NCBI RefSeq assembly: GCF_031202305.1
Contig: NZ_CP101731.1
Location: forward strand, 558,001-622,000
Direction: 5' to 3'
DNA length: 64,000 nt
Source: Pelagibacterium sp. 26DY04
GTDB taxonomy: Bacteria; Pseudomonadota; Alphaproteobacteria; Rhizobiales; Devosiaceae
Every line of letters starts with the position of its first letter. Positions within the stretch are counted from its first letter, which is position 1. A program made the position numbers and the translations under genes. Shown here piece after piece: positions 45,921-63,707 of this stretch. The notes under the pieces are model-generated. The model made no database searches. It was not told the DNA's origin and saw only the letters and a list, made by a program, of their open reading frames with translations.

Positions 45921-47453
<1,533 letters not shown>

Positions 47454-47480
47454 CCGCCACCCCGTATCTGGAATGCTTCC

Positions 47481-48686
47481 ATGAGTGACATGACCCAATC
47501 CTCGGCCCAGGCGCAAAAACCTCAATTCGCCTCACTGGGCTATATCCGCACCCATATGCGTGAATACGGCATCCTGTTTGCGCTGATCGCCATCATGGTG
47601 TTCTTCCAGATCGCGACGGGCGGCATTCTCTTGCGTCCGGTCAACATCACCAATCTGGTGCTGCAGAATTCCTATATCATCATCATGGCCGTCGGCATGC
47701 TGCTGGTGATCGTCGCCGGCCATATCGACCTTTCCGTAGGCTCGGTCATGGGCTTCGTCGGCGCGCTTTCGGCCGTGCTGATGGTCGATTTCAACATCCA
47801 CTTCATCCCCGCCGCCCTCATCTGCTTGCTGATCGGCGCCGCCATCGGCGCCATCCAGGGCTATTGGGTGGCGTATTGGAAAATCCCCAGCTTCATCGTC
47901 ACCCTGGCCGGCATGCTGGTCTTCAAGGGCTTGATGATGGTGATCCTCAAGGGCCGCTCGCTGGGCCCGTTCCCCGATGAATTCCGCCTGATCGCCTCTG
48001 GCTTCATCCCCGATATCGCCGCCATCGAAGGCTTCCACCTGCTCTCGATGCTGCTCGGTGTCGCGGTCGCCGCCATCCTCGTCTGGCTCTCCATCCGCGC
48101 TCGCGCCAAGGAGGCAAAGCATGGCGTGCCCGACGAGCCCTTCGCCTTCTTTGTCGGCCGCAACATCCTCATTGCCGGCGCCGTGCTCTGGCTGGTCTAT
48201 CTGCTCGCCACCTCGCGCGGCCTGCCGAATGTCTTCATCATCATGGCGGTGCTGATCGCCGGCTATTCGTTCATCGCCAAGCACACCACAATCGGTCGCC
48301 GCATCTACGCGGTGGGTGGCAACCAGAAGGCCGCCAAGCTCTCGGGCATCAATTCCGAACGGCTCACCTTCCTCGTCTTTGCCAATATGGGCATGCTTGC
48401 CGCTTTGGCCGGCCTGGTCTTTGCCGCCCGCCTCAACATGGCCACACCCAAGGCCGGCGAAACCTTCGAACTAGACGTTATCGCCGCAGTCTTTATCGGC
48501 GGGGCGTCCATGGCGGGTGGCGTGGGCACCATCGTTGGCGCGGTGATCGGCGCGTTCATCATGGGGGTGATGAACAACGGTATGTCCATCATGGGCATCG
48601 GCATCGACTGGCAGCAGATGATCAAGGGTTTAGTGTTGCTCGCTGCGGTGCTGTTCGACGTTTACAACAAGAACAAGGCCGCCTGA
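47481..48686 (+). CDS. gguB: Sugar ABC transporter permease GguB
   Basis: A 401-residue XylH-type permease, longer than RbsC because of a central insertion (about residues 190-260), as in GguB/XylH. Motifs include IVAGHIDLSVGSVMGFVGALSAVLM, FIVTLAGMLVFKGLMMVIL, IYAVGGNQKAAKLSGINSERL and AVFIGGASMAGGVGTIVGAVIG. About ten to twelve helices. It forms the membrane channel as a homodimer. Confidence 0.93.
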   Translation: MSDMTQSSAQAQKPQFASLGYIRTHMREYGILFALIAIMVFFQIATGGILLRPVNITNLVLQNSYIIIMAVGMLLVIVAGHIDLSVGSVMGFVGALSAVLMVDFNIHFIPAALICLLIGAAIGAIQGYWVAYWKIPSFIVTLAGMLVFKGLMMVILKGRSLGPFPDEFRLIASGFIPDIAAIEGFHLLSMLLGVAVAAILVWLSIRARAKEAKHGVPDEPFAFFVGRNILIAGAVLWLVYLLATSRGLPNVFIIMAVLIAGYSFIAKHTTIGRRIYAVGGNQKAAKLSGINSERLTFLVFANMGMLAALAGLVFAARLNMATPKAGETFELDVIAAVFIGGASMAGGVGTIVGAVIGAFIMGVMNNGMSIMGIGIDWQQMIKGLVLLAAVLFDVYNKNKAA

Positions 48687-48725
48687 TTTTCGGGCCGACC
48701 GCTTACCTTGCTGGAGTGTATCCAA

Positions 48726-49724
48726 GTGCTGCTTTCTCAGATCGTCGATACGAGCGGATCCCACTGTGTCGTGATGCGCCAGGACAACGAGGCCAGGATC
48801 GTCCTCGGCGCCGATTCGATCCTCACCCTGGCCAAGCGCGCCATGGCCAAGGCCATGCCGCTTGCCGCCCTGATCGAAGAGCAGGGGCTAGGCGAAATTG
48901 TCGACCTTGAGGCAGCCTATGCCGAAGGCAGGATGCTTGCGCCTATCGCGCCCGAGGAGCCTTCTCGCCTGCACCTCACCGGCACGGGATTGACCCATCT
49001 GGGCTCGGCCGCAACGCGTAACGCCATGCACCAGAAGGCCGGCGCAGAGGAAAACCTGACCGATTCCATGAAGATGTTCCGTCTCGGGCTCGAAGGCGGA
49101 AAGCCTCAGGGCGGCAAGACGGGCGTGCAGCCCGAATGGTTCTATAAGGGCAACGGCCACGCCCTCGTCGCGCCGGGTAAGCCGATCATCTCCCCCGGCT
49201 TTGCCCTCGATGCGGGCGAGGAACCCGAAATCGCCGGCATCTATATCGTCTCCTATGAGGGGGTTCCGCACCGGATCGGCTTTGCCCTGGCCAATGAGTT
49301 CTCCGACCACGTCACCGAGCGGCAGAACTATCTCTACCTTGCCCACTCCAAGCTGCGTCCCGCCTCGATCGGGCCGGAAATCCTCGTAGGCGATCTTCCT
49401 GCCCATGTGGAGGGAACCTCGCGCGTCATCCGCAACGGCGCCGTGCTGTGGGAAAAGCCGTTCGTATCGGGCGAGGACAATATGAGCCACACCGTGGCCA
49501 ATCTCGAGCACCATCACTTCAAATACGAGATCTTCCGCAAGCCGGGCGATATCCACGTCCACATGTTCGGAACCGCGACCCTGTCGTTCGCCGACGACAT
49601 CCGCACGCAGGGGGGCGACATTTTCGAGATCGAGGCGGCTCCGTTCGGCCTGCCGCTCAGAAATCCTCTGACCATCGATACGACACGTCCCGCCGACGCG
49701 CCGGTCACGGTTGCCAAACTCTAG
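48726..49724 (+). CDS. gguC: AraD1-family protein GguC (fumarylacetoacetate-hydrolase fold)
   Basis: A 332-residue protein of the GguC/AraD1 group: TGTGLTHLGSAATRNAMH, GVQPEWFYKGNG, PGFALDAGEEPEIAGIYI, FALANEFSDHVTERQNYLYLAHSKLRPASIGPE. It sits in the FAH superfamily, whose members hydrate, hydrolyse or decarboxylate keto acids. GTG 48726 is used because GGAG lies about 10 nt upstream. Its position next to the dehydratase suggests action on the resulting 2-keto-3-deoxy acid (such as KDA), but its reaction is not established. Confidence 0.87.
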   Translation: MLLSQIVDTSGSHCVVMRQDNEARIVLGADSILTLAKRAMAKAMPLAALIEEQGLGEIVDLEAAYAEGRMLAPIAPEEPSRLHLTGTGLTHLGSAATRNAMHQKAGAEENLTDSMKMFRLGLEGGKPQGGKTGVQPEWFYKGNGHALVAPGKPIISPGFALDAGEEPEIAGIYIVSYEGVPHRIGFALANEFSDHVTERQNYLYLAHSKLRPASIGPEILVGDLPAHVEGTSRVIRNGAVLWEKPFVSGEDNMSHTVANLEHHHFKYEIFRKPGDIHVHMFGTATLSFADDIRTQGGDIFEIEAAPFGLPLRNPLTIDTTRPADAPVTVAKL

Positions 49725-49737
49725 GGGTAGCGCAGGG

Positions 49738-51480
49738 ATGACGTTCAAGAAGGCTCAATGGCCGCGCCCGTTGCGGTCTGCCCATTGGTTCGGCGGCGCC
49801 AGCCGCGACCATATCTATCACCGCTCCTGGATGAAGAACCAGGGCCTGCCCGCCGACCTCTTCGACGGCCGCCCGGTGATCGGTATCTGCAACACCTGGT
49901 CGGAGATGACCCCCTGCAACGCCCATCTGCGCGACCTCGCACAGCGGGTAAAGCACGGCATCTACGAGGCCGGCGGCCTGCCGCTCGAATTTCCGGTGTT
50001 CTCCACCGGCGAGAGCGCCCTGCGCCCCACCGCCATGATGTACCGCAATCTCGCCGCCATGGATGTCGAGGAAGCCATCCGGGCCAATCCCTGCGACGGC
50101 GTCGTGCTGCTCGCCGGCTGCGACAAGACCACCCCGGCGCTTTTGATGGGCGCCGCCAGCACCGACGTGCCCTCGATCCTGGTCTCTGGCGGTCCCATGC
50201 TCAACGGCCACTGGCGCAACCAGTCGATCGGCTCGGGCACCGCCCTCTGGCAGATGAGCGAAATGGTCAAGTCGGGTGAATTGACCCAACTCGATTTCCT
50301 CGACGCCGAACAGGCCATGTCCCGCTCCCCCGGCTCGTGCAACACCATGGGCACGGCGTCCACCATGGCCTCGATGGCCGAAGCGCTCGGCATGGCGCTC
50401 TCGGGCAATGCCGCCATTCCGGCGGTGGACAGCCGCCGCCGTGTCATGGCGCAACTGACTGGCCGGCGCATCGTCGAAATGGTCAAGGATGATCTGAAGC
50501 CTTCCGATATCCTCACCAAGCAGGCTTTCGAAAACGCCATAATGACCAATGGCGCCATCGGTGGTTCTACCAATGCGGTGATCCACCTCCTCGCCATCGC
50601 CGGCCGCGTTGGCGTCGATCTTTCTCTCGATGATTGGGACCGGCTGGGCCGCGACATCCCCACCATCGTCAACCTGATGCCCTCGGGCAAATATCTGATG
50701 GAGGAGTTCTTCTACGCCGGCGGCCTGCCGGTGGTGCTGAAATCGCTCCTTGATGGCGGCAAGCTCCATGGCGATGCGCTGACGGTTTCCGGCAAGCCCA
50801 TCGCCGCCGAGATCGAGCACGTCAAGAACTGGAATCCGGAGGTCATCCGCCCCGTCGACCAGGCTCTCACCTCCCATGGCGGTATCGCGGTCTTGAAGGG
50901 AAACCTCGCCCCCAACGGCGCGGTGCTCAAGCCCTCTGCCGCCAGCGAGCACCTGATGGTCCATCGCGGCCGCGCCGTGGTCTTCGAGGACATCGACGAC
51001 TACAAGGCCAGGATCAACGACGAGAACCTCGATATCGACGAAACCTGTGTCATGGTCATGAAGAATTGCGGTCCGCGCGGCTATCCCGGCATGGCCGAAG
51101 TGGGCAATATGGGCCTGCCGCCCAAAGTGCTGCGCAAGGGCATCAAGGACATGGTGCGCATTTCCGATGCCCGCATGTCCGGCACCGCTTACGGCACTGT
51201 CGTCCTCCACACCTCCCCCGAAGCCGCCGTCGGCGGGCCCTTGGCCATTGTCAAAACCGGCGATTACATCGAGATCGACGTTCCTAACCGGCGCCTGCAT
51301 CTCGATGTTCCCGACGCCGAAATCGCCGAGCGGCTTCTCGCCTGGTCCCCGCCCGTCGAAAAGCCCGCCTCGGGTTATGCCCGTCTGTTCCATGAGCATG
51401 TGCAGGGTGCCGATACCGGTGCCGATTTCGACTTTTTGAAGGGCTGCCGCGGCCGCGAAGTGGGTAAGGACTCTCACTGA
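49738..51480 (+). CDS. IlvD/Edd-family dehydratase, L-arabonate/galactonate type
   Basis: A 580-residue [2Fe-2S] dehydratase with cysteines at 60 (MTPCNAH), 128 (AGCDKTTPA) and 201 (PGSCNTMGTASTM), very close to characterised L-arabonate dehydratase (59/127/200). The N-terminus RSAHWFGGASRDHIYHRSWMKNQG is of the pentonate/hexonate class. It should convert L-arabonate or D-galactonate to the 2-keto-3-deoxy acid. ATG 49738 follows GCAGGG; the next gene starts within its stop (TGATG). It differs clearly from the second IlvD-type enzyme at 10205-11941. Confidence 0.9.
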   Translation: MTFKKAQWPRPLRSAHWFGGASRDHIYHRSWMKNQGLPADLFDGRPVIGICNTWSEMTPCNAHLRDLAQRVKHGIYEAGGLPLEFPVFSTGESALRPTAMMYRNLAAMDVEEAIRANPCDGVVLLAGCDKTTPALLMGAASTDVPSILVSGGPMLNGHWRNQSIGSGTALWQMSEMVKSGELTQLDFLDAEQAMSRSPGSCNTMGTASTMASMAEALGMALSGNAAIPAVDSRRRVMAQLTGRRIVEMVKDDLKPSDILTKQAFENAIMTNGAIGGSTNAVIHLLAIAGRVGVDLSLDDWDRLGRDIPTIVNLMPSGKYLMEEFFYAGGLPVVLKSLLDGGKLHGDALTVSGKPIAAEIEHVKNWNPEVIRPVDQALTSHGGIAVLKGNLAPNGAVLKPSAASEHLMVHRGRAVVFEDIDDYKARINDENLDIDETCVMVMKNCGPRGYPGMAEVGNMGLPPKVLRKGIKDMVRISDARMSGTAYGTVVLHTSPEAAVGGPLAIVKTGDYIEIDVPNRRLHLDVPDAEIAERLLAWSPPVEKPASGYARLFHEHVQGADTGADFDFLKGCRGREVGKDSH

Positions 51481-52403
51481 TGGTCAGAAAGATCGCTATC
51501 GTCGGCCTGGGCAAGATCGCCCGCGACCAGCATGTGCCCTCGGTCGAAAAGAACCCCGATTTCGAGCTTGCCGCCACCGTCAGCCGCAATGCGCGCCTCG
51601 ACGGTATCGACAGCTATGAAACGCTGGGAGAAATGCTCGCTGCGCGCCCCGATATCGATTGCGTGGCGCTCTGCACCCCGCCTCAGGTGCGCCGGCAATA
51701 TGCGGTGGAGGCTATCGAGGCTGGCCGCCACGTGCTGCTGGAAAAGCCCCCCGGCGCTACCGTCGCGGAAGTGCAGTCGCTAGGGGCGCTGGCCGGCCGT
51801 CACGCCGTTACCCTCTTTGCCACTTGGCACTCGCGCTACGCCCAGGGCGTAGAGCCAGCCCGCAAATGGCTGGCCGACAAGACGATCGAGGCCGCCGAAA
51901 TCGTCTGGCGCGAGGACGTCCGCCGCTGGCATCCGGGCCAGGACTGGATATGGTCTCCCGGCGGCATGGGCGTTTTCGACCCCGGCATCAACGCGCTGTC
52001 CATCCTCACCCACATCCTTCCCGCGCCCGTGCACGTCACCGCCGCGTCCCTCGATATCCCCTCTAACCGCCAAACCCCCATTGCCGCCCGTATCGATTTC
52101 CTGGCCGCCACCGGCCATCCTGTTACAGCCGATTTCGACTGGCGCCAAGAGGGCCCGCAAACCTGGGACATCACGGTCCGCACAACCTCCGGCACCCTCC
52201 ATCTTTCGGCCGGCGGCGCTACCCTCACCATCGACGGCAATGAACACCTTGCCGCCCCCGATACTGAATATGACGGCATCTACACCCATTTCGCCCTCCT
52301 GCTCGCTGCCGGCGAAAGCGCGGTGGACCTCTCCCCCCTGCAACTGGTCGCCGACGCCTTCATGCTCGGCAATATCCGGCAGGTGGAGGAGTTTCACGAC
52401 TAG
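51480..52403 (+). CDS. Gfo/Idh/MocA-family sugar 1-dehydrogenase (D-galactose/L-arabinose type)
   Basis: A 307-residue oxidoreductase: IAIVGLGKIARDQHVPSVEKNP Rossmann start, CTPPQVRRQYAVEAIEAGRHVLLEKPPGATVAEV with the EKPP catalytic motif, and WIWSPGGMGVFDPGINALSIL. This EKPPGAT/GVFDPGINALSI pattern is that of bacterial D-galactose or L-arabinose 1-dehydrogenases (about 308 residues). It supplies the aldonolactone for the SMP-30 lactonase. Last gene of the chvE-ggu operon. Confidence 0.88.
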   Translation: MVRKIAIVGLGKIARDQHVPSVEKNPDFELAATVSRNARLDGIDSYETLGEMLAARPDIDCVALCTPPQVRRQYAVEAIEAGRHVLLEKPPGATVAEVQSLGALAGRHAVTLFATWHSRYAQGVEPARKWLADKTIEAAEIVWREDVRRWHPGQDWIWSPGGMGVFDPGINALSILTHILPAPVHVTAASLDIPSNRQTPIAARIDFLAATGHPVTADFDWRQEGPQTWDITVRTTSGTLHLSAGGATLTIDGNEHLAAPDTEYDGIYTHFALLLAAGESAVDLSPLQLVADAFMLGNIRQVEEFHD

Positions 52404-52440
52404 CAACGCCAAGATTTCCCCCCACAGGTAGCCAACCATC

Positions 52441-52575
52441 CACTTCGTCGTCTTCGGGCTTGACCCGGAGACCCGCGAGGCTCCCACACCTTCAGCAGAA
52501 GTGGGTTCTCCAACGCCTACCGCACCCCTGGCAAGGGCTGCGGATTGTCGGGTCAGGTCCGACAATAACGATGGG
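52441..52575. repeat. Composite inverted intergenic repeat (CGGGTC-type)
   Basis: Two inverted half-elements: CGTCGTCTTCGGGCTTGACC near 52446-52465 and GCGGATTGTCGGGTC to CCGACAATAACGA near 52540-52572. The same family occurs at 55773-55900. It fills most of the 286-bp gap between the galactose/arabinose dehydrogenase gene and the F420-linked genes, and marks the boundary of that cluster. Confidence 0.7.
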
Positions 52576-52601
52576 ATAGTACGGAACCAGCACCACCAAA
52601 T

Positions 52602-52623
52602 AATTTTACCAAAAGGTCAAAAT
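52602..52623. promoter_or_regulatory. Candidate operator shared by both F420-type LLM genes (copy 1)
   Basis: Half-sites AATTTTACCA and AGGTCAAAAT around a 2-bp centre form an imperfect 22-bp palindrome, 67 bp before the LLM gene start at 52690. It matches 57895-57916 at 16 of 22 positions with the same 10-2-10 layout. No regulator gene lies within the cluster. Confidence 0.6.
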
Positions 52624-52689
52624 CACCCTCTGTCACTCTCCCCGCCTTTGTGATTGACTAATCCTCGGACGCACAGGGGAGTTCGCGGA

Positions 52690-53715
52690 ATGTCGGTCTT
52701 CAAATCCGGACCCGAGGGCTTGATCGGCTATGCGGTAATGCTCGAGCAGTTCCATCCGCGAGACTGCGTCGAACTCACCGCCTACGCCGAACAAAAAGGC
52801 TTCAACGGCGCCATGGCCGCCGACCATTTCCAGCCCTGGGTGCCGCAGCAGGGCCAATCCGCCTTCGTCTGGAACGTTCTGACCGCCATCGGTGAGCGCA
52901 CCAAGGGCGATATGGGCCCCGGCGTCACCACACCGACCTTCCGCTGGCACCCGGCCATGGTTGCCCAGGCCTCGGCCACCCTCGCCGCCATGTACCCCAA
53001 TCGCCATTGGCTGGGCGTTGGGGCAGGGGAGGCGCTCAACGAAAGCTTCCTCGCCCAATACTGGCCTGACGCCGGCGAGCGCTCGGCCCGCATGTTCGAG
53101 GCCATCGAACTCATCAAGAAGCTTTTCGAGAATTCGGCCAGGGGCAAGGACACCAAGCACAAGGGCGAATACTACAAGATGGAGGCCACCCGCCTCTGGA
53201 CCATGCCCGAAATCCCGCCGGAAATCCTGGTCGCCACCGCCGGCCCGATCAACGCCAGAAAAACCGGCAGGCTGGCCGACGGAATCATCACGGTCGGTGC
53301 CCCCCTCGAAAAGATCGAGATGCTGTTCGAAAAATTCTCCGAAGGCGCTCGCGAAGCGGGCAAGAACCCCGACACCATGCCCAAGATCCTCCAGCTTCAT
53401 TTAAGCTGGGCGCCCACCTATGAAGAGGCGCTGGCCAACGCCATGACCGAATGGCCCAATGGCGGCATGAAATTCCCCAAGGCCGATATCCGCTCGCCCT
53501 TCGATTTCGAGCAGATGGCCAAGCTCGTCCGCCCTGAGGATTTCAAGGGTCGCATGGTGATTTCCGCTGATCCGGACGAACATCTCGAGCATATCGAAAA
53601 ATTCGCCGCCTTCGGTTTCGATCGGATCTACCTGCACAATGTCGGCCGCAATCAACAGGAGTGGATCGATGTCTTCTCCGAAAAAGTCCTGCCCCGCCTG
53701 AGGAAAGCCAAATGA
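52690..53715 (+). CDS. F420-dependent glucose-6-phosphate dehydrogenase-like LLM oxidoreductase
   Basis: A 341-residue luciferase-like monooxygenase-fold protein. Strong likeness to mycobacterial FGD1: AADHFQPW (Asp45, His46), [31 protein letters not shown] (Glu114), and a lysine in [13 protein letters not shown] where FGD1 has a phosphate-binding lysine. Such enzymes transfer hydride from a sugar or alcohol to F420. It is coupled to cofE (ATGA at 53712-53715). G6P is the default substrate guess, but other sugar phosphates or secondary alcohols fit the family too. Start ATG 52690 follows GGGGAG. Confidence 0.85.
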
Positions 53716-54515
53716 CACCGCGGCTGACACTCTGGGGCATCGAAGGCATCCCCGAAGTTGCGCCGGGCGACGATCTCGTCGCGCTCATCACGACGGCGAT
53801 CGATGCCATGGCAAAAATCGATCCCGAGGCGGCGTTGGCCGACGGCGATATTCTCATCGTCACCTCCAAGATTGTCTCCAAGGCCGAAGGCATGCAGGTC
53901 CCGCTCGAAGCACGCGAACTGGCGATTGAAGAGGATACCGTCCGCATCGTAGCCGAACGCGCCCATCCGGGCGGGATCACCAAGATCGTCGAAACCCGCC
54001 AGGGCCTCGTCATGGCCGCCGCCGGCCTCGATACCTCCAACGTTCCCGCTGGCCAGGCCCTGCGCCTGCCGCGCGATCCCGACGCCTCGGCCAAAACTCT
54101 CTGCGCAGGACTGCGCGAAAGAACCGGCAAGCGCCTCGGCGTCATCGTCACCGATACGCTCGGCCGCCCCTGGCGCGTCGGCCAAACCGACGCGGCCATC
54201 GGCGCCGCCGGTGTCCATCTCGTCGACGATCTACGCGGTGGCGTCGATGCCAATGGCCGCCCCCTGAGCGCCACCGTCACCGTTCTCGCCGACGAACTCG
54301 CCGCCGCGGCCGATCTGGTCAAGGGCAAGGCATCCCGCATCCCGGTCGCGGTCGCCCGCGGCCTCTCCCGCCTGGTTATCGGTCTCGATAGCCCCGGCGC
54401 CAAAACCCTCGCCCGTCCTGCCCAGGACGACATGTTCCGCCTCGGCTCGTCCGAGGCTTATCGGCAGGGTTATGAGGCCGCGATGCGGGAGATGACCAAG
54501 GAGCCTGCGAAATGA
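53712..54515 (+). CDS. cofE: Coenzyme F420-0:L-glutamate ligase CofE
   Basis: A 267-residue CofE/FbiB N-domain protein: [85 protein letters not shown] (metal/GTP site) and [16 protein letters not shown]. It adds gamma-linked glutamates to F420-0 using GTP, the last step in F420 synthesis. No FMN-reductase half (as in FbiB) is attached. Both ends overlap neighbours by ATGA (53712-53715 and 54512-54515), tying it to the LLM gene and the ABC binding-protein gene. Confidence 0.93.
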
Positions 54516-55711
54516 GTACCCATACGCCCCTTGGTGCTTGTGGCGCACCCCTCACCCCCATCCCCTCTCCCTCAAGGGGAGAGGGGGGCTTTTCCCGCGA
54601 ACGCTTGCTCCAGGCTACCCTTCTCCCCTTGAGGGAGAGGGTGGGCTTTCGCTTGAAAAGCGAAAGGTCGGATGAGGGGTGTTCTGAGCTGGCCATTTCC
54701 ACCATCACCCGCCAAAAGCTACCCTTCTCCCCTGGTGGGAGAAGGTGCCCCGAAGGGGCGGATGAGGGGGGTGCAGCGTTTGCCAAATGCGCAACGCTCA
54801 CGATTGCCATAACCGCTCTTTTTGCCACCCCAGCCCTCGCCACCGACTACCCCCTCACCATCGAAAACTGCGGCACCACCGTCACCTTCACCGCGCCCCC
54901 AGAGCGCGTCGTCACCATCAAATCCACCGCCACCGAAATGCTCCTCGCCCTCGGCCTGGGCGACAGGATCGTCGGCGTGGGCTTCCAGGACGGGCCCGTG
55001 CCCGAACAATGGGCGCCCGCAACCTTTCTTCCCGTCCTCGCCGACCGCGTCCCCAGCCAGGAGGTGGTGCTCGAAGCAGAACCCGATTTCGTCTATGGGG
55101 GCTGGGAAAGCAGCTTTGCCGCCGATGCCGCCGGCGAGCGCGACAGCTTGCACGCCCTTGGCATCGCCACCTATGTCGCCCCCACCGCCTGCCGCTCGAC
55201 CGGCACGCCCGAAAAGCTCTCCTTTGAGGATGTCTTCGACCAAATCCTCGAAATGGGCATGATCTTCGACGTTGAGGACCGTGCCGCCGAACTGGTCGAT
55301 CAGCAGCGCGCCCTCCTGGCCGAGATCAAACCGGCGTCCAATCTCACCGGCGTCTGGTATTCCTCGGCTACCTCCACGCCCTATGTCGGCGCTGGCCTCG
55401 GCGGCCCGCAGATGACCATGGACGCTCTAGGCATCACCAACATCTTCTCCGAAGTCCAGGACACCTGGACCTCGGCAAGCTGGGAAGCCATCGTCGATCA
55501 GAACCCCGACGTGATGATCCTCGTCGATGCCGAATGGAATTCGGTGGATCAGAAAATCCGCCTGCTCAACGACAACCCCGCCACCGCCAACATGAGCGCG
55601 GTGCAGAACGCGCGCTATCTCACCATCCCGTTCCCCGCCGCCGAACCCGGCGTCCGTTCCGTTCCGGCGACTGTGGAACTGGCCAACCAACTGACTGGGC
55701 TGGATTTCTAG
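54512..55711 (+). CDS. ABC transporter binding protein (BtuF/FecB fold), candidate F420-0-binding protein, with repeat-encoded N-terminus
   Basis: The frame encodes 399 residues. Residues from about 91 look like a normal precursor: hydrophobic signal core [18 protein letters not shown], then [47 protein letters not shown] (Peripla_BP_2). Residues about 11-87 are translated from three palindromic repeat units. ATG 54512 overlaps the cofE stop and is the only in-frame ATG before the signal core; TTG and GTG codons inside the repeats are the alternatives. Family ligands are siderophores, haem or cobalamin. The cofE/LLM context favours F420-0. Confidence 0.75.
54545..54771. repeat. Three palindromic repeat units inside the 5' part of the binding-protein reading frame
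   Basis: Units at about 54545-54590 (inverted orientation), 54616-54680 and 54720-54771 share CCCTTCTCCC/GGGAGAAGG-type hairpins and the GCGGATGAGGGG tail with the copies at 30961, 58966 and 60350. All three are read without a stop in the frame of the gene starting at 54512. Confidence 0.85.
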
Positions 55712-56039
55712 CCATGGTCGCCGCCGCACTCGGTTGCTCTGCGCAAAACTTCTTTAGTGGTGGCGGTAGTGTTGCGGATTCTCGGGCCAAGCCCGACAAT
55801 GACGAGGGGGTGTGGCGACTGGGCGGCCCCCAGTACGCGTCACCATATTGTTTCGCTCCATCCTCTCACCCTCGTCGTCCTCGAGCTCGACCCGGGGACC
55901 CGCAACGCGGCCACGAATCCAGAAGATGTGGCCTCCACCGCTCCGCTGGCAAAAACCGGGGTCCAGGTGGCTCTATAGTCCGTCCAACCTATGGGCGGCC
56001 CCCATTGCGTCGCGGAGCGAACACGCGGAGCCATCACTG
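55712..56039. other. Gene-free 328-bp spacer between binding-protein and permease genes, with repeats
   Basis: It contains an inverted CGGGTC-type composite repeat (about 55773-55900: GCGGATTCTCGGGCC to CCCGACAATGACGA, and CTCGTCGTCCTCGAGCTCGACC). A 20-bp segment at 55714-55733 is 18/20 identical to the permease start region at 56040-56059. GGGCGGCCCCCA also occurs twice (about 55821 and 55993). No gene is recognised; it looks like inserted intergenic sequence in a once tighter operon. Confidence 0.7.
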
Positions 56040-57098
56040 ATGGTCGCCGCCCCGCTCGGCCTCTCCGCCCTCACTCCCGCCGCCCTGCGAAGGCTGCGCT
56101 TCCACGCTTGGCTCGCCGGCCTCACCATTCTCCTGGTCCTCTCGATCACTCTCGCGGTCACGGTCGGCCCCGCCGATATCAGCACCGGCGATGTCTGGGC
56201 CGTCATCGCCCACCGCCTCGGCCTCGTTCCCGACAGTCCCGTCTCGGTCCTGCGTGAGGGCATTGTCTGGGAGCTTCGCCTGCCACGCGTCCTTTCGGCC
56301 GCCTTGGTAGGCGCCGGCCTTGCCATTTGCGGCGCCGTGATGCAGGCGCTGACCCGCAATCCCTTGGCCGATCCATACCTGCTCGGCATCTCCTCGGGGG
56401 CCTCGGTCGGCGCCGTCGCCATGCTGCTCTTCGGGGCCACGCTGCTTCTCCCCGCCGGCGCCTTTCTCGGTGCCCTTGCCGCCATGGGCCTCACCCTCGG
56501 CCTTGCCCGTGCGCTCGGCGCCATCACCGCGTCGCGGGCGATCCTTGCCGGCCTTGCGGTTTCGGCCCTCGCCTCGGCGCTGACCTCTTTCCTCATCTTT
56601 TCCACCGCCACCGGAGATTCCTACCGCGAGATTCTCTCCTGGCTCATGGGGTCGCTCGCGGGCATGCGCTGGTCCGATACCGGCCTTGCCGCTATGGTTT
56701 TCGCGGCGGTGGGCCTGCCGCTGCTGGCCTCCGGCCGTATCCTCGACGGCTTCGTTTTCGGGGACACCGCCGCCCGTGTGCTTGGCATCGATGTTGAACG
56801 CACCCGCTGGTTGATGCTTGGCGCTACCGCGCTTCTCACCGGCGTTCTCGTCGCCATTTCCGGCTCCATCGGCTTTGTCGGCCTCATCCTTCCCCATGCG
56901 GTGCGGCTGGTCGCCGGTGGACGTCACCGCCATCTGCTGCCGCTCGCCGCGCTCGCCGGCGCGGTCTTCATGGTCTGGACCGACACTGCCGCCCGCACCC
57001 TGTTCGACCCGCGCGAACTTCCGGTCGGTATCGTCACCGCCATGATCGGCGCGCCCGCCTTTTTCCTCATCCTCCTGCGCAACAGGCGGGCGACATGA
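56040..57098 (+). CDS. FecCD/BtuC-family ABC permease, candidate F420-0 transporter permease
   Basis: A 352-residue permease with about ten helices: LPRVLSAALVGAGLAICGAVMQALTRNPLADPYLLGISSGASVGAVA is the FecCD hallmark, followed by GSLAGMRWSD and FVGLILPHAVRLVAGGRHRHLLPLAALAGAVFMVWTDTAARTLFDPRELPVGIVTAMIGAPAFFLILLR. ATG 56040 is chosen; the frame extends to 55812 only through spacer repeats. It is coupled to the ATPase gene by ATGA. Forms the channel with the neighbouring binding protein and ATPase. Confidence 0.88.
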   Translation: MVAAPLGLSALTPAALRRLRFHAWLAGLTILLVLSITLAVTVGPADISTGDVWAVIAHRLGLVPDSPVSVLREGIVWELRLPRVLSAALVGAGLAICGAVMQALTRNPLADPYLLGISSGASVGAVAMLLFGATLLLPAGAFLGALAAMGLTLGLARALGAITASRAILAGLAVSALASALTSFLIFSTATGDSYREILSWLMGSLAGMRWSDTGLAAMVFAAVGLPLLASGRILDGFVFGDTAARVLGIDVERTRWLMLGATALLTGVLVAISGSIGFVGLILPHAVRLVAGGRHRHLLPLAALAGAVFMVWTDTAARTLFDPRELPVGIVTAMIGAPAFFLILLRNRRAT

Positions 57099-57868
57099 GC
57101 CTTGCGGTCGAAAGCGCCAGCCTCGCGATAGACGGCAAACAGATCCTCGATGGGGTCAGCTTCACCCTCCAGCCGGGCCGCCTCAACGCCCTGATCGGCC
57201 CCAATGGCGCGGGCAAGTCCACGCTTTTGCGCGTCATTCTCGGTTTCGAACCTGCTGCCAAGGCTCATGTCACCTTCGAAGGCCACGACCTCCACGCCCT
57301 GCCGCGCAAAATTCGCGCCCAGCGCGCCGCTCTCGTCGAACAGGCGGTCACCACCGATCAACCCATCGATGTTCATGATGCCGTCATGCTCGGCCGTCTG
57401 CCGCATCAGGGCCTGTGGTCCGCCGATACCGAGACGGACGATGAAGCCGTCGTTGCCGATGCTCTTGCGCGTGTGGGGATGACGGATTTCGCCACCCGCC
57501 GCTTTTCCACGCTTTCGGGCGGTGAGCAGCAGCGCGTCCAGATCGCCCGCGCCCTGGCGCAAAAGCCGCGCCTCCTGCTTCTCGACGAGCCCACCAACCA
57601 TCTCGATCTCTCCGCTCAGGTCGCGGTTATGGAAATCCTGCGCGCCCTTGCCGAAGAGGGGCTCACGATCCTCGTCACCATGCATGATCTCAATCTGACC
57701 GCGGCCTGGTTCGATCACGTGATCGCCCTCGACAAGGGCAGGGTGGTGCGGGAGGGCGCGCCCGATGCCGTCATCGATGCAGCCTTCCTCGCGCGCGTCT
57801 ATGGCGTCACCGCCACCATCGTTCCCAATCCCGCCTCTGGCCGCCCCATGATTGCTTACGGCCCCTGA
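57095..57868 (+). CDS. FecE/BtuD-family ABC ATPase, candidate F420-0 transporter ATPase
   Basis: A 257-residue ATPase: Walker A GPNGAGKST at 35-43, HDAVMLGRLPHQGLWS after the Q-loop, LSGGEQQRVQIARALAQ signature, LLLLDEPTNHLDLS and MHDLNLTAAWFDHV. It completes a three-gene metallophore-class importer located between cofE and an F420-type oxidoreductase. Confidence 0.88.
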   Translation: MSLAVESASLAIDGKQILDGVSFTLQPGRLNALIGPNGAGKSTLLRVILGFEPAAKAHVTFEGHDLHALPRKIRAQRAALVEQAVTTDQPIDVHDAVMLGRLPHQGLWSADTETDDEAVVADALARVGMTDFATRRFSTLSGGEQQRVQIARALAQKPRLLLLDEPTNHLDLSAQVAVMEILRALAEEGLTILVTMHDLNLTAAWFDHVIALDKGRVVREGAPDAVIDAAFLARVYGVTATIVPNPASGRPMIAYGP

Positions 57869-57894
57869 ACGATTGCTCTTGCCGGGCAGGAAAA

Positions 57895-57916
57895 AATTTG
57901 ATCATCTGGTCAAATT
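57895..57916. promoter_or_regulatory. Candidate operator shared by both F420-type LLM genes (copy 2)
   Basis: Half-sites AATTTGATCA and TGGTCAAATT around a 2-bp centre pair at 9 of 10 positions. It is 29 bp upstream of the second LLM gene (57945), a typical repressor position. It aligns with 52602-52623 at 16/22 bases. Confidence 0.65.
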
Positions 57917-57944
57917 CGCCAGTTTCAGAGGGGGAACTTCGGCC

Positions 57945-58946
57945 ATGGAATTCGGGATCACCTTCAAAGGCTTCGTTGAGCACGATCGGGCGCGCTATCT
58001 GATCCAGGCCGCCGAATATGCCGGCTTTTCCTATTGCTGGTTCTACGATTCCCACATTCTCTGGCGTGATCCCTATCCGGCCATGGCCATGGGCATGGAG
58101 TGGACCCAATCCATGCGCTTTGGTCCGCTCGTCACCAATCCCGATGTGCGCGATTGGTCGGTGGCCGCCTCGCTGTTCGGCTCGCTTGCCAAGCAGAGTG
58201 GGGGCCGCTTCGATCTTGCCGTGGGGCGCGGCGATTCCTCACGCCGCGTCATGGGCCACAAGCCCGCTACGCTCAAACGCGTCGCCGAATTCATCGAAAA
58301 GACCAAGGCCATGGTGCGCGGCGATGAGGTGACTTATGGCGAAGTTCCCAACCCCGTCCAGTTTCCCTGGGCCGTTGGCCACGAAATCCCGAGCTGGATC
58401 GCCGCCTATGGCCCGCTGGCGCTGAAGACCGCCGGCGAAAGCGCCGATGGCGTCGTCCTCCAGATCGCCGAGCCGGGCCTGTGCAGATGGTTCACCGACC
58501 AGTGCCTTGAAGCGGGCCGCGCCGCCGGCCGCGACATGAGCGCCTATCGCTCCATGGCCGCCGCCCCCGCCTATTTCGGCGACAGACAACGCGCCATCGC
58601 CGCCACCCGCTGGTTCCCGGCCATGGTCGGCAATCACGTTGCCGATATCGTTGAAAAATACGGCGCCGATACCGACAAGGTCCCTGCCAGCCTCACCTCT
58701 TATATCGAAGCCCGTCGCGGCTATGATTATTCAAAGCACGGACAGTCCGATAACCCCTATCTCGATTTCATCACCGACGACATCGTCGAAAGCTTCTGCG
58801 TTTTGGGCGAGCCCGAGGACCACATCGCCAAGATTCGCGACCTGGAAGCGGCCGGCGTCACCCAATTCAACATCTACCTCGACAGTGGCGACGAAGAAGA
58901 AATCATCGCGCGTTATGGTCGAGAGGTGATCCCGGCGTTTCGGTGA
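57945..58946 (+). CDS. LLM-class F420-dependent oxidoreductase (CPS_4043-type)
   Basis: A 333-residue luciferase-like protein: MEFGITFKGFVEHDRARYLIQ, YCWFYDSHILWRDPYP, LVTNPDVRDWSVAASLFGSLAKQSGGRFDLAVGRGDSSRRVMGHKPATL and PSWIAAYGPLALKTAGESADGVVLQ. This pattern resembles the F420-type LLM subgroup defined by CPS_4043, of unknown substrate. It has its own upstream palindrome. ATG 57945 begins the conserved domain; a longer in-frame extension to 57852 would translate the operator. Confidence 0.82.
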   Translation: MEFGITFKGFVEHDRARYLIQAAEYAGFSYCWFYDSHILWRDPYPAMAMGMEWTQSMRFGPLVTNPDVRDWSVAASLFGSLAKQSGGRFDLAVGRGDSSRRVMGHKPATLKRVAEFIEKTKAMVRGDEVTYGEVPNPVQFPWAVGHEIPSWIAAYGPLALKTAGESADGVVLQIAEPGLCRWFTDQCLEAGRAAGRDMSAYRSMAAAPAYFGDRQRAIAATRWFPAMVGNHVADIVEKYGADTDKVPASLTSYIEARRGYDYSKHGQSDNPYLDFITDDIVESFCVLGEPEDHIAKIRDLEAAGVTQFNIYLDSGDEEEIIARYGREVIPAFR

Positions 58947-58965: not shown

Positions 58966-59130
58966 TGCTGAAACTCAGCGCCCCCCTCACCCCCGTCCCC
59001 TCTCCCACCAGGGGAGGGGGGCTTGGGGTTGCGCTTGAGTTCTTGCTGAAGCGCTGCCACAGACTACCCTTCTCCCCTGGTGGGAGAAGGTGCCCCGAAG
59101 GGGCGGATGAGGGGGCGCTGAGCTTCAGCA
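58966..59130. repeat. REPIN-like element: two palindromic repeats in inverted orientation with about 25-bp inverted ends
   Basis: The left end (from 58966, TGCTGAAACTCAGCG onwards) and the right end (to 59130) are inverted copies with one mismatch and one indel over about 25 bp. The interior carries hairpin units at 58980-59022 and 59065-59115. It lies between the convergent ends of the LLM gene and the argE-type gene, and may act as a bidirectional transcription barrier. Confidence 0.8.
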
Positions 59131-60505: not shown

Positions 60506-61690
60506 CTACTGTTTCACACACAATTCCCGCGGCACATTGGCCAGGCATTCCGGCCCGCCGATATCGGTGATCCGCATGGTTTCGGTGATCTCCAGCCCCC
60601 ATTCGGGCGTCCAGATGGCCGGCATGAAGTGGAACACCATGTTGGGCCGCAAAACCGACCGGTCTCCTGGGCGGATGCTCATCGTGTGCTCGCCCCAATC
60701 GGGCGGATAGGAGAGCCCCACCGAATATCCGGTGCGCGAGGTCTTCTCTACGCCGTACTTCCGCAGCACCCCGAAAAACGCCTCGGCGATCTCTCCGCAG
60801 GTATAGCCCGGCTTGGCCACCGCCATGCCCGCTTCCATGCCCTCGAGCACCGCTTCCTGCGCCTTGAGCATGTCCTTGGGTGGCTCGCCCAGGAACACGG
60901 TGCGCGAAATCGGGCAGTGATAGCGCTTGTAGCACCCGGCAATTTCGAAGAACGTGCCTTCGCCCGAGACCAGCTCCCGATCATCCCAGGTCAGATGCGC
61001 CGCCGCCGCGTCGCGCCCCGAGGGTGTCAGCGGCACGATGGCTGAATAATCCCCGCCATACCCGTCAGCGCCCAAAAGCGAAGCGTGGTAGATCTCGGCC
61101 ACCAGCTCGTTCTTGCGCAATCCCGGACGGGTCACCTCGCGGATGCGGCTATGCATGGCTTCGACGATTCGCGCCGCCCGGCGCATGAATTCGATTTCCG
61201 CCTCCGATTTCACCGAACGCTGCCAGGTCACGACCGAAGTTGCATCGACCACGCTCACGCCTGGGATTTCCGCCCTCAGCGTTTCAAGGCATGCCGCGGT
61301 GAAATAGTAATTGTCCATTTCCACCCCGATGCGGCGCCCGTCCCAGCCCTTGTCGCGCAACACCCCGCACAGATGCACATAAGCGTGCTTTTCCGGGTTC
61401 TGCACGAAATCGTCGGGATAGGCGTAGATGGAGTCGGTGGAAAGCCAGGTGGTCTTTTCCGCTCCCACCGCATCCATGGGCCGCCCCCACCAGACCGGTT
61501 CGTCGGTCAGCGACACGATCACCGCCTGATGCACGTAAAAGCTCCACCCGTCATAGCCGGTGAGCCAGTGCATGTTGGAGGGGTTGGTGACGATCAATAC
61601 GTCGATGCCCTGCGTCTGCATGGCGCGGCGCACCGCCTCCAGGCGTTCGTAATATTCGGGCAGGGTAAAGGGCAGGCGGGTGTTCGGCAT
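60506..61690 (-). CDS. doeA: Ectoine hydrolase (DoeA/EutD), M24 family
   Basis: A 394-residue creatinase/prolidase-fold protein: LPFTLPEYYERLEAVRRAMQTQGIDVLIVTNPSNMHWLTGYDGWSFYVHQAV, then the C-terminal pita-bread domain (EGTFFEIAGCYKRYHCPISRTVFLG, YSVGLSYPPDWGEHTMSIRPGDRSVLRPNMVFHFMPAIW). This is the EutD/DoeA subgroup, which opens the ectoine ring to N-acetyl-2,4-diaminobutyrate. It lies 32 bp after eutC. Confidence 0.92.
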   Translation of the reverse strand: MPNTRLPFTLPEYYERLEAVRRAMQTQGIDVLIVTNPSNMHWLTGYDGWSFYVHQAVIVSLTDEPVWWGRPMDAVGAEKTTWLSTDSIYAYPDDFVQNPEKHAYVHLCGVLRDKGWDGRRIGVEMDNYYFTAACLETLRAEIPGVSVVDATSVVTWQRSVKSEAEIEFMRRAARIVEAMHSRIREVTRPGLRKNELVAEIYHASLLGADGYGGDYSAIVPLTPSGRDAAAAHLTWDDRELVSGEGTFFEIAGCYKRYHCPISRTVFLGEPPKDMLKAQEAVLEGMEAGMAVAKPGYTCGEIAEAFFGVLRKYGVEKTSRTGYSVGLSYPPDWGEHTMSIRPGDRSVLRPNMVFHFMPAIWTPEWGLEITETMRITDIGGPECLANVPRELCVKQ

Positions 61691-61722
61691 TTGCCTTTGC
61701 GCTCCAGGGAAAGACCTGACGA

Positions 61723-62715
61723 TCAGGTCGAGAATTTGGTGCCCGCGTCGCTCGTCCGCGCGCGGGTTCGGGCCAGGGCGGCGATCGCCGTGTCCTGCAC
61801 GCCCGTGCCGGTCAGATCGGCATAGGTGATATCGGTCGCCGTCTGGCGCCCCGCCATGCTGCCGGCAATGATTTGCCCCAACTCGGCAAATCTCTGGTCG
61901 GGCGCCACGAACCCCGCATCGATCGCATGATGCAACTCCCCCAGGCGCCGCGTCTGGGCAAGGCTGTCGGCCACGTAAAGCTCAACGCGCGGCACCAGTG
62001 CCGGGTCGATCTCGTTCTTGTGCTCGGCGTCCGATCCCATGGCGGTCAGGTGCTGCCCGGGCGTCATCCACTCGGCCAGTATCAGCGGTTCCGTGGCCGG
62101 CGTCGTCGTCACTACGATATCGGCGCCACGCACCGCCGCCTCGGCAGTTTCGGCCGCCGTTACGTCAATCCCAAGCTCGGAAGAAGCCCGCCGCGCAAAA
62201 GCCTGCGCCTTTTCGGCATCCCGCGCCCAGATGCGCGCCGAATTGATGTCGCGCACCAGTGTCAGCGCTTCGAGCTGCATTCGCGCCTGCATCCCGGCCC
62301 CGATGATCGCAACCGATTGCGCATCCTCGCGCGCCAGGTGCCTTGCCGCTACCGCGCCGGCTGCCGCCGTGCGCACGTCGGTGAGGTATCCATTGTCGAG
62401 CAGCAGCGCCTCGACCAACCCGGTCCTGGCGGAGAGCACCACCATCAACCCATTGGTCGAGGGCAATCCGATCTTGGGATTATCGAAAAACCCGGGGCTC
62501 ACCTTGATGGCAAAGCTCTCCACGCCCGGCAGGTAAGCCGTCTTGACGTCCACCTCGCCATTGGCATCGGTGATGTCGAGCCGCAATATCGGCGGCATCA
62601 CCACCTTGCCCCCGGCCAGCGCCCGGAACGCCTGCTCGACGCAATCTATGGCCGCCAGATCCAGCCGCACGAGCTCGCGCAATTCCGCTTCGGTGAGGAT
62701 CTGAATCTCCGCCAT
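61723..62715 (-). CDS. eutC: Ornithine cyclodeaminase/mu-crystallin family protein EutC
   Basis: A 330-residue protein with EutC-type sequence: AFRALAGGKVVMPPILRLDI, VKVSPGFFDNPKIGLPSTNGLMVVLSARTGL, YLTDVRTAAAGAVAARHLAREDAQSVAIIGAGMQARMQLEAL (Rossmann). ATG 62715 overlaps the eutB stop (TGATG); a GTG one codon upstream is possible. In rhizobial eut operons it works with EutB in hydroxyectoine breakdown. Confidence 0.92.
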   Translation of the reverse strand: MAEIQILTEAELRELVRLDLAAIDCVEQAFRALAGGKVVMPPILRLDITDANGEVDVKTAYLPGVESFAIKVSPGFFDNPKIGLPSTNGLMVVLSARTGLVEALLLDNGYLTDVRTAAAGAVAARHLAREDAQSVAIIGAGMQARMQLEALTLVRDINSARIWARDAEKAQAFARRASSELGIDVTAAETAEAAVRGADIVVTTTPATEPLILAEWMTPGQHLTAMGSDAEHKNEIDPALVPRVELYVADSLAQTRRLGELHHAIDAGFVAPDQRFAELGQIIAGSMAGRQTATDITYADLTGTGVQDTAIAALARTRARTSDAGTKFST

Positions 62716-63707
62716 CACGCCAGCTCCCCGAACACCGGATGCGTGCCGGCGACGATCTGCCCATGCACGCCCATATCGATATTCTTGCCCGAAAGAACGA
62801 CGGCAGTTGGGCCGACCGGCGCGAATTTCCCCGCCAGGATCGCCCCGATCCCCACGGCTGCCGCCCCTTCGATCACCTCGCGCTCCTCATTGTAGGCATG
62901 GGCAATCCCCGCCGCGATCTCCCGCTCGGTCAGCAGCACCGTCTCGTCCACCAACTCGCGCACCATGGAGAAGGTATGTCTGTTCTCCAGCCCGATCCCG
63001 CCGCCCAGCGAATCCGCCAGCGTTTCCAGCTCCTCCACGATCACCGGCTTGCCCGCCGCAAGGCAGGCCACCATCGCCGCCCCGCGCTCCATCGAAACCC
63101 CGATCACCCGCGTTTTGGGCGATAACGCCTTGACGGCCAGCGCCACCCCGGCGATCAGCCCGCCGCCCGAAAGCGGCACCAGCACCGCGTCGAGCGCGGG
63201 AACATCCTTGACGATCTCCAGGCCAAGCGTGCCCTGTCCGGCGATCACCTCGGCCTTATCGAACGGCGGGACCTCTATAAGTCCCTCCTCGCGGACCAGC
63301 CTGTCCACCTCGACCTGAGCATCGTCCTGGCTCATGCCGATGATCCGCGCATCGGCCCCCAGCGCCTTGATCGCCTCCACCTTGTTGGCGGGCACCAGCG
63401 AGGACATGCAGATCACCGCCCGTGACCCGGCAGCTTTGGCGGCATGGGCCAGCGCCCGCCCGTGATTGCCGGTGGACGCAGCCGCCACCCCGCGCCTGCG
63501 CTCGTCATCGGACAGCGCAAGCACGGCATTTGTCGCCCCGCGCAGCTTGAAGCTGCCGGTCAGTTGCTGGTGCTCGTTCTTGAGGAGGATCGGATGCCCG
63601 GTCCGTTGCGTCAGCGCGGCGCTTTGGGAAAGTGAAGTGCGGTGGACGAGGGAACCGATGCGCCTGCGCGCCTCCAGCACATCAACCATTGTCACGGCGT
63701 CGGCCAT
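62715..63707 (-). CDS. eutB: Hydroxyectoine utilisation dehydratase EutB (PLP, threonine dehydratase-like)
   Basis: A 330-residue fold-type II PLP enzyme: LTGSFKLRGATNAVLAL with the PLP lysine at about residue 50, STGNHGRALAHAAKAAG, VPLSGGGLIAGVALAVKAL (phosphate-binding glycines) and GIGLENRHTFSMVRELVDETVLL, specific to the EutB group. ATG 63707 is preferred to the frame from 63737. First gene of eutB-eutC-doeA-(argE-like). The operon regulator is probably beyond the right edge. Confidence 0.92.
   Translation of the reverse strand: MADAVTMVDVLEARRRIGSLVHRTSLSQSAALTQRTGHPILLKNEHQQLTGSFKLRGATNAVLALSDDERRRGVAAASTGNHGRALAHAAKAAGSRAVICMSSLVPANKVEAIKALGADARIIGMSQDDAQVEVDRLVREEGLIEVPPFDKAEVIAGQGTLGLEIVKDVPALDAVLVPLSGGGLIAGVALAVKALSPKTRVIGVSMERGAAMVACLAAGKPVIVEELETLADSLGGGIGLENRHTFSMVRELVDETVLLTEREIAAGIAHAYNEEREVIEGAAAVGIGAILAGKFAPVGPTAVVLSGKNIDMGVHGQIVAGTHPVFGELA

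What the first reader, a model, noticed from the sequence alone, without database searches (positions are those of the whole stretch)
52690..58946. F420-0 scavenging cassette in an alphaproteobacterium: FGD-like LLM - cofE - BtuFCD-type ABC transporter - second F420-type LLM
Directly seen: a G6PDH-like F420 enzyme overlaps cofE, cofE overlaps a BtuF-type binding-protein gene, then permease, ATPase and a second F420-type LLM gene follow. Established: TIGRFAM descriptions (TIGR03868/03869/03873, from memory) propose that such a three-gene ABC set next to cofE, found in actinobacteria often lacking the rest of F420 synthesis, imports F420-0; some also neighbour an FGD gene (TIGR03554). Inference: this bacterium may import F420-0 from other microbes, finish its glutamate tail with CofE and use it with two LLM enzymes. 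A cofactor-piracy module outside Actinobacteria would be new.
Basis: partly seen in the sequence, partly recalled or inferred. Interest (0 to 1): 0.93.

Follow-up and report, generated by a model that had tools for sequence, protein, structure and literature searches.

The report
Bacterial cassette scavenging cofactor F420
Many members of one bacterial family that show no genes for making the redox cofactor F420 carry a compact gene set that looks built to import an unfinished form of it, finish it and use it, which suggests that they live off F420 made by other microbes.

Summary
In a complete Pelagibacterium-type chromosome (Devosiaceae, 3.89 Mb), window 52690-58946 encodes an FGD-family LLM enzyme, CofE, a binding protein, permease and ATPase, and a TIGR03842 LLM. 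Binding protein and permease pass the NCBI models for the proposed F420-0 importer; the ATPase scores best on its model but below cut-off. No CofC, CofD or CofH/FbiC was found in the genome. Across 136 Devosiaceae, none has FO synthase over cut-off or CofD. The transporter (at least 300 bits) and full-length CofE occur in exactly the same 69 genomes, and TIGR03842 over cut-off in 68 of those and no other. CofE and the first LLM look actinobacterial in origin. Most likely: F420-0 is imported, glutamylated by CofE and used by the two LLMs. Substrate, outer-membrane passage and F420 content are not shown. The idea for Actinobacteria is not new (TIGRFAM, recalled), and NCBI already auto-names Pelagibacterium and Devosia copies. 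New here: the near-perfect linkage in an alphaproteobacterial family, and actinobacterial cassettes beside cofC/cofD but without FO synthase, pointing to FO import there.

The parts
52690..53715 (+). LLM1: FGD-family F420-type luciferase-like oxidoreductase
   Evidence: TIGR03557 279 bits over cut-off 210; TIGR03554 (FGD equivalog) 223, under 420. Aligned to FGD1 (3b4y), D39, H40, W44, E109, N112, K259, R283 kept, K198 not (roles of these residues recalled). 75-79% identical to named actinobacterial proteins
53712..54515 (+). CofE, F420-0:L-glutamate ligase
   Evidence: TIGR01916 217.5 bits over cut-off 180.65; folate-type TIGR04132 only 57 against cut-off 350; only PF01996 match in the genome
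54562..54785 (.). palindromic intergenic repeats between cofE and the binding-protein gene, read through by the long open frame
   Evidence: inverted repeats I1 and I2 and direct repeats D1-D3; a further copy with 3 mismatches at 58997
54800..55711 (+). periplasmic binding protein of the proposed F420-0 ABC importer (start uncertain; the open frame begins at 54512)
   Evidence: TIGR03868 415 bits over cut-off 392; nearest solved chain by sequence 4mlz, 284 bits
56040..57098 (+). permease of the importer
   Evidence: TIGR03869 473 bits over cut-off 437; next BtuC models 263 and 247
57095..57868 (+). ATPase of the importer
   Evidence: best family TIGR03873, 316 bits, below its cut-off 372; next haem ATPase 248
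57945..58946 (+). LLM2: TIGR03842 family F420-type oxidoreductase
   Evidence: 476 bits over cut-off 295; 72% identical to the LLM beside the de novo F420 cluster of Paracoccus alcaliphilus

Best explanation
An F420 scavenging and use module. A BtuFCD-type ABC importer takes up F420-0 (the deazaflavin phospholactate without its glutamate tail) released by other microbes. CofE adds glutamates, which suits the cofactor to enzymes and may help retain it. LLM1 (a sugar- or sugar-phosphate-type F420 dehydrogenase; an FGD sits in this slot in Devosia) reduces it, and LLM2 uses it. Shown: gene content, family assignments, absence of recognisable synthesis enzymes, co-occurrence, actinobacterial affinity of CofE and LLM1. 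Inferred: substrate, direction of transport, cofactor of both LLMs, source of F420-0, outer-membrane passage.
For: TIGR03868 and TIGR03869 over cut-off. No CofD, CofC or CofH match in the complete genome. In Devosiaceae the transporter (at least 300 bits) is in 69 of 136 genomes and full-length CofE in the same 69; TIGR03842 is over cut-off in 68 of those 69 and in none of the other 67; FO synthase over cut-off 0 of 136, CofD 0 of 136. All six genes stand together in 64 of 69 loci; 4 of the other 5 are cut by contig ends. The first gene of the Devosia locus tested is FGD by the equivalog model, 498 bits against 420. Of 25 fetched genomes with a binding protein at 53-85% identity, 25 have CofE and 0 have FO synthase over cut-off. 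Two Devosiaceae carry a second transporter set beside a different CofE that groups with CofEs of proteobacterial de novo clusters: a second pairing of the two functions.
Against: The ATPase misses its model's cut-off. Ten of the 25 genomes have CofD, 7 of them with CofC seen nearby, yet no FO synthase over cut-off, so part of the transporter family may serve FO import; the substrate need not be F420-0. A related binding-protein group scoring 230-270 bits on TIGR03868 occurs in Devosiaceae without CofE, so the sharp linkage depends on the line drawn between 329 and 269 bits. The co-occurrence count ignores relatedness. No outer-membrane receptor is among the six genes; flanking genes were not annotated for one. 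LLM1 scores slightly higher on the FMN-type family TIGR03885 (294, under its cut-off 399) than on TIGR03557 (279, over). Whether environments hold enough free F420-0 was not examined.
Confidence: 0.68

Rival explanations
1. The importer takes up mature F420-n (or a partly trimmed form), and CofE only adjusts the tail length.
For: No gene test here separates F420-0 from F420-n as the imported form; CofE is in all 69 transporter genomes, which fits both.
Against: Polyglutamylated F420 is large and highly charged (established). CofE would not be strictly needed, yet it is not missing in any of the 69. Genes around the six vary between loci, so no further gene such as a tail-trimming peptidase looks fixed, though the flanking genes were not annotated.
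Confidence: 0.13
2. The transporter's real ligand is FO or deazaflavins in general, and the Devosiaceae import FO, completing it with enzymes not recognised here.
For: Ten of 25 family genomes have CofD (7 with CofC seen nearby) without FO synthase over cut-off; in L012 cofD and cofC pass their equivalog models right beside the ABC genes. FO occurs in the supernatant of a producer (passage in PMC11104420).
Against: 0 of 136 Devosiaceae have a CofD match and the own genome has no CofC match; CofE needs F420-0 as its acceptor (established).
Confidence: 0.1
3. An ordinary cobalamin, haem or siderophore importer that happens to sit beside cofE, with FMN-using LLM enzymes.
For: Fold family Peripla_BP_2, FecCD and ABC_tran; ATPase below its F420-0 cut-off with the haem ATPase model next; a related binding-protein group exists without CofE.
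Against: Competing models score far lower for binding protein (EitA 135 against 415) and permease (BtuC 263 against 473); no Rfam match, so no cobalamin riboswitch at gathering threshold, in 49-61 kb; 69-for-69 co-occurrence with CofE; residues K43-S44, D66, W104 and S106 are invariant in 35 family members and different in ten of the nearest other importers.
Confidence: 0.06
4. F420 is made de novo through unrecognised replacements of CofC, CofD and CofG/H.
For: CofE and F420-type LLMs are present and conserved.
Against: Several unrelated replacements would be needed at once; another alphaproteobacterium has annotated cofG, cofH, cofD-type and cofC genes (Paracoccus alcaliphilus), so the usual enzymes occur in the class; an importer would then not be needed.
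Confidence: 0.03

Closest known systems
Proposed actinobacterial F420-0 ABC transporter cassette (TIGR03868/TIGR03869/TIGR03873, beside cofE; description recalled from TIGRFAM)
   Same: Three ABC subunits, CofE and an FGD-family LLM, no FO synthase over cut-off in the genome
   Different: Alphaproteobacterial and Gram-negative, six genes in one block, ATPase under the model cut-off, TIGR03842 LLM within the block
BtuFCD cobalamin importer (E. coli type)
   Same: Same transporter class (Peripla_BP_2, FecCD, ABC_tran)
   Different: BtuC and BtuD models score far below the F420-0 models; no riboswitch found
De novo F420 cluster of Proteobacteria (cofG-cofH-cofD-cofC-cofE-npdG in Paracoccus alcaliphilus)
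   Same: CofE and a TIGR03842 LLM (72% identical to LLM2)
   Different: Has the genes to make FO and F420-0 itself; its CofE lies in another part of the tree
Mycobacterial F420-dependent glucose-6-phosphate dehydrogenase FGD1 (3b4y)
   Same: LLM1 keeps the D39, H40, W44 and E109 positions; the Devosia gene tested in the same slot passes the FGD model
   Different: LLM1 fails the FGD equivalog cut-off and lacks the lysine at position 198
4mlz, solved periplasmic binding protein (recalled to come from Jonesia denitrificans)
   Same: Closest solved relative of the binding protein by sequence, 284 bits
   Different: No ligand is named in the output that I saw

Membership tests
F420-0 ABC importer (TIGR03868/03869/03873) | Binding protein over the TIGR03868 cut-off | tested here: met
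   415.3 against 392.4
F420-0 ABC importer (TIGR03868/03869/03873) | Permease over the TIGR03869 cut-off | tested here: met
   472.9 against 437.35
F420-0 ABC importer (TIGR03868/03869/03873) | ATPase over the TIGR03873 cut-off | tested here: not met
   316.2 against 372.4, though the best family for this protein
F420-0 ABC importer (TIGR03868/03869/03873) | CofE in the genome, rest of F420 synthesis missing | tested here: met
   CofE present; no match to CofD, CofC or CofH; CofG not searched separately
F420-0 ABC importer (TIGR03868/03869/03873) | Transports F420-0 | not testable with these tools
   No experiment is known to me for any member; no such paper listed
CofE, F420-0:L-glutamate ligase | Over the TIGR01916 cut-off and better than the folate-type ligase model | tested here: met
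   217.5 against 180.65; TIGR04132 57.1 against 350
F420-dependent glucose-6-phosphate dehydrogenase (TIGR03554) | LLM1 over the equivalog cut-off | tested here: not met
   223.2 against 420; the Devosia gene tested in the same slot meets it, 497.9
TIGR03557 F420-dependent LLM subfamily | LLM1 over the cut-off | tested here: met
   278.7 against 210.4
TIGR03885 FMN-type LLM | LLM1 over the cut-off | tested here: not met
   293.8 against 398.7
TIGR03842 LLM | LLM2 over the cut-off | tested here: met
   476.4 against 295.45
BtuC cobalamin permease | Permease over a BtuC equivalog cut-off | tested here: not met
   263 against 461 and 247 against 334

The most novel reading that the evidence does not exclude
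One transporter family carries deazaflavins at two stages. In Actinobacteria with cofC, cofD and cofE but no FO synthase it imports FO; in Devosiaceae and Salinibacterium-type Actinobacteria with cofE but no cofD it imports F420-0. F420 is then a shared good with dedicated non-makers in at least two phyla, and half of the Devosiaceae examined (69 of 136) are F420 auxotrophs that depend on producers.
Probability: 0.4. Interest if true: 0.88.

Novelty: new member of a known kind. Interest (0 to 1): 0.76.

Why it matters
F420 is usually treated as a cofactor that each user makes for itself; the section and passages of the 2021 review that I read describe its distribution by synthesis genes. If this module works as inferred, the presence of F420-dependent enzymes no longer implies synthesis, F420 becomes an exchanged microbial vitamin like B12, and a whole alphaproteobacterial family becomes a convenient test bed for an uptake hypothesis for which I found no experiment.

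Tried and rejected
Cobalamin reading: tested by model scores and Rfam, not supported. Plasmid spread of the binding protein: 16 of 72,556 plasmid records matched at E up to 1e-40, none at 60% identity or more, best listed 37.6%. Spread in Alphaproteobacteria: 1 of 387 sampled genomes over the TIGR03868 cut-off, the window's own (at most 6 first-look candidates per genome were scored there, so a miss is possible). The transporter tree does not settle the direction of transfer: Devosiaceae lie among Actinobacteria (50 of 97 rows that had all three genes), but with four long rows dropped (46 rows) the actinobacterial rows form one side at support 57. The CofE tree (48 of 120 rows) carries long-branch warnings, for L157, L158 and L241 among others. 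PF01933 also catches YvcK-type proteins: of 12 of 28 genomes with a match I counted as CofD only those that matched the L012 CofD by tblastn, which drops G019; G026 also matches but is outside the family of 25. Promoter and terminator scan: nothing above chance. Literature searches; no paper on an alphaproteobacterial F420 importer was listed.
Full report
What is there. The window lies in a single-contig genome of 3,887,506 bases, completeness 99.93. The cassette reads LLM1 52690-53715, cofE 53712-54515, binding protein (about 54800)-55711, permease 56040-57098, ATPase 57095-57868, LLM2 57945-58946, all on the + strand. Upstream are GguABC-type genes, a sugar-acid dehydratase and a Gfo/Idh-type oxidoreductase; downstream, on the other strand, an acetylornithine deacetylase-type gene and ectoine-degradation genes. 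Neither side bears on F420.

Families. NCBIfam scores with cut-offs: LLM1 TIGR03557 279/210, TIGR03554 (FGD) 223/420, TIGR03885 294/399; CofE TIGR01916 218/181; binding protein TIGR03868 415/392; permease TIGR03869 473/437; ATPase TIGR03873 316/372; LLM2 TIGR03842 476/295. Two of three transporter subunits therefore pass the models of the proposed F420-0 importer and one does not. The next-best models are clearly lower for binding protein (siderophore EitA 135) and permease (BtuC 263), less so for the ATPase (haem ATPase 248). No Rfam family reaches its gathering score in 49-61 kb.

One overlap is not real evidence. The long open frame that makes cofE and the binding-protein gene overlap runs through palindromic repeats. 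The 96%-identical protein P0001 (Pelagibacterium sp. H642 by its source name) starts at the residue matching window 54800, where this window has ACG. The start used here is unknown.

No recognisable synthesis. The own genome has no match to CofD (PF01933), CofC (PF01983) or CofH (TIGR03551). CofG was not searched separately. The same TIGR03551 search finds a fused FO synthase-type protein in the Rhodococcus genome G026 at 529 bits, and 3 control genomes pass its cut-off, so it can see FO synthase.

Co-occurrence. Over 136 Devosiaceae genomes the binding protein is over cut-off in 66, and in 69 if three matches of 329 to 390 bits are counted. CofE has a match in 70, of which one (G110, a 2.0 Mb genome) is a fragment with a stop. 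The 69 full-length CofE genomes are exactly the 69 transporter genomes (Fisher p about 2e-40, which ignores relatedness). TIGR03842 over cut-off: 68, all within the 69; the exception, G097, is a 55%-complete assembly. FO synthase over cut-off: 0 of 136, with 7 weak matches of at most 28 bits. CofD: 0 of 136. Against a clean picture: below these matches comes a gap and then a group of binding proteins at about 230-270 bits, some in genomes without CofE such as G151, G152, G154 and G157; these are related importers of unknown ligand. Within the window's own genus 8 of 13 genomes have the set and 5 have neither a transporter match of 300 bits nor CofE, so the module seems gained or lost as a unit. 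In G110 only scraps of cofE and LLM2 remain in the stretch read.

Architecture. Of the 69 main loci, 64 show all six genes together; in 12 of these LLM2 lies at the upstream end. Of the other five, four run into contig ends and one (G150, Pelagibacterium lacus by its contig) lacks the first gene (one of the 64, L162, shows split hits). The first gene differs: the 7 loci of the window's genus that have it carry LLM1, the 61 others carry a different protein, which in the one tested is FGD by the equivalog model (498 bits against 420). So the slot of an F420 dehydrogenase is kept while the gene in it is exchanged. LLM1 keeps the FGD1 positions D39, H40, W44, E109, K259 and R283 but not K198 (their roles in F420 and phosphate binding are recalled).

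Elsewhere. A pattern scan of genome contigs (84,980 species) gave 41 loci; 25 of them have a binding protein at 53-85% identity: 5 of the Devosiaceae type and 20 from Actinobacteria. That scan is not exhaustive (it returned only 2 named Devosia). All 25 genomes have CofE; 0 of 25 have FO synthase over cut-off, 4 having weak matches of at most 31 bits. Several are metagenome assemblies whose completeness is not told. Ten of 25 have a CofD after YvcK-type matches are removed, seven of them with CofC seen nearby; in L012 both pass their equivalog models. These ten show no way to make FO, but those with both CofC and CofD could turn FO into F420-0, so there the simplest cargo is FO. The CofD state changes at least 4 times on the quick transporter tree (9 of the 10 CofD genomes are in it), so the same transporter lineage seems to work in both settings. 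This is the main departure from the recalled TIGRFAM proposal.

Origin. In the CofE tree (48 of 120 rows) the main cassette CofEs of Devosiaceae form one group (support 100) inside a set with actinobacterial cassette CofEs (93), separated (99) from CofEs of proteobacterial de novo clusters. The named relatives of LLM1 among the 120 listed are actinobacterial at 75-79% identity, except a Devosia sp. (79%) and one labelled Lysobacter korlensis (77%); most listed rows have no name. LLM2 is instead 72% identical to the LLM beside the F420 cluster of Paracoccus alcaliphilus, which supports F420 as its cofactor. The transporter tree sets all these importers against the other importers used as outgroup (100) and Devosiaceae as one clade (94 to 98) but does not settle the direction of transfer. 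Two genomes, G102 and G121, hold a second transporter set beside a CofE that falls with the de novo CofEs of Proteobacteria and Thermomicrobium (both are long branches; the G121 binding protein is at 366 bits, under the cut-off): the pairing seems to have arisen again with a distant CofE lineage.

Mechanism, with what is shown and what is not. Shown: genes, families, absences, linkage. Inferred: F420-0 enters the periplasm (no receptor among the six genes; its mass, recalled as near 515 Da, might allow porins), is bound and imported, gets glutamates from CofE, is reduced by LLM1 or FGD and spent by LLM2. In the binding protein K43-S44, D66, W104 and S106 are invariant in the 35 aligned family members and differ in the ten non-family proteins aligned; they are candidates for the ligand site, untested.

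Known or new. The F420-0 importer idea is from TIGRFAM descriptions (recalled; the 2010 paper that I believe belongs to them is not held). NCBI already names Pelagibacterium and Devosia copies so. Papers: of PMC8498797 I read passages and one section, of PMC6279831, PMC12855090 and PMC11104420 passages only, of others the search listing. None of the passages mentions F420 uptake by a bacterium that does not make it; PMC8498797 mentions a putative exporter beside a F420 cluster, and PMC11104420 states that FO is present in the supernatant of a producer. I found no paper on such a module in Alphaproteobacteria in the searches listed under Tried and rejected. I file it as a new member of a known, still unproven kind, with strong new genomic support and one new twist (FO).

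Noticed in passing
L012:8001-12424, L006, L008, L011, L022 and loci L049, L051: Actinobacterial transporter sets in genomes with cofD and cofC, close by, but without FO synthase over cut-off, which points to FO import rather than F420-0 import.
   Followed up: partly
L157:7854-11574 (G102) and L158:8556-14925 (G121): Second transporter sets in two Devosiaceae beside a CofE of another lineage; the one in G121 also has a Mer-like LLM and a thiolase-type gene nearby.
   Followed up: partly
L159:8867-9300 (G110): In a 2.0 Mb Devosiaceae genome only scraps of cofE and LLM2 remain: the cassette seems to have decayed as a unit.
   Followed up: partly
window 54562-54785 and 58997-59020: Palindromic CCCCTCTCCCTCAAGGGGAGAGGG-type repeats; one array sits between cofE and the binding-protein gene and lengthens its open frame.
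   Followed up: partly
window 54800: The relative P0001 starts its binding protein at the residue where this window reads ACG; the start codon used here is unclear.
   Followed up: no
L242 (Sinorhizobium meliloti pSymA, 47330-54082): npdG-cofE with CofD-like sequence next to it on a symbiotic plasmid; whether FO synthase is present was not checked.
   Followed up: no
G148:C1:2414232-2415092 and similar places: A second binding-protein group in Devosiaceae scoring about 230-270 bits on TIGR03868, also in genomes without CofE; ligand unknown.
   Followed up: no
window 60506-62718 (- strand): Ectoine degradation genes (DoeA-type just under its cut-off, EutC over it) near the cassette.
   Followed up: no
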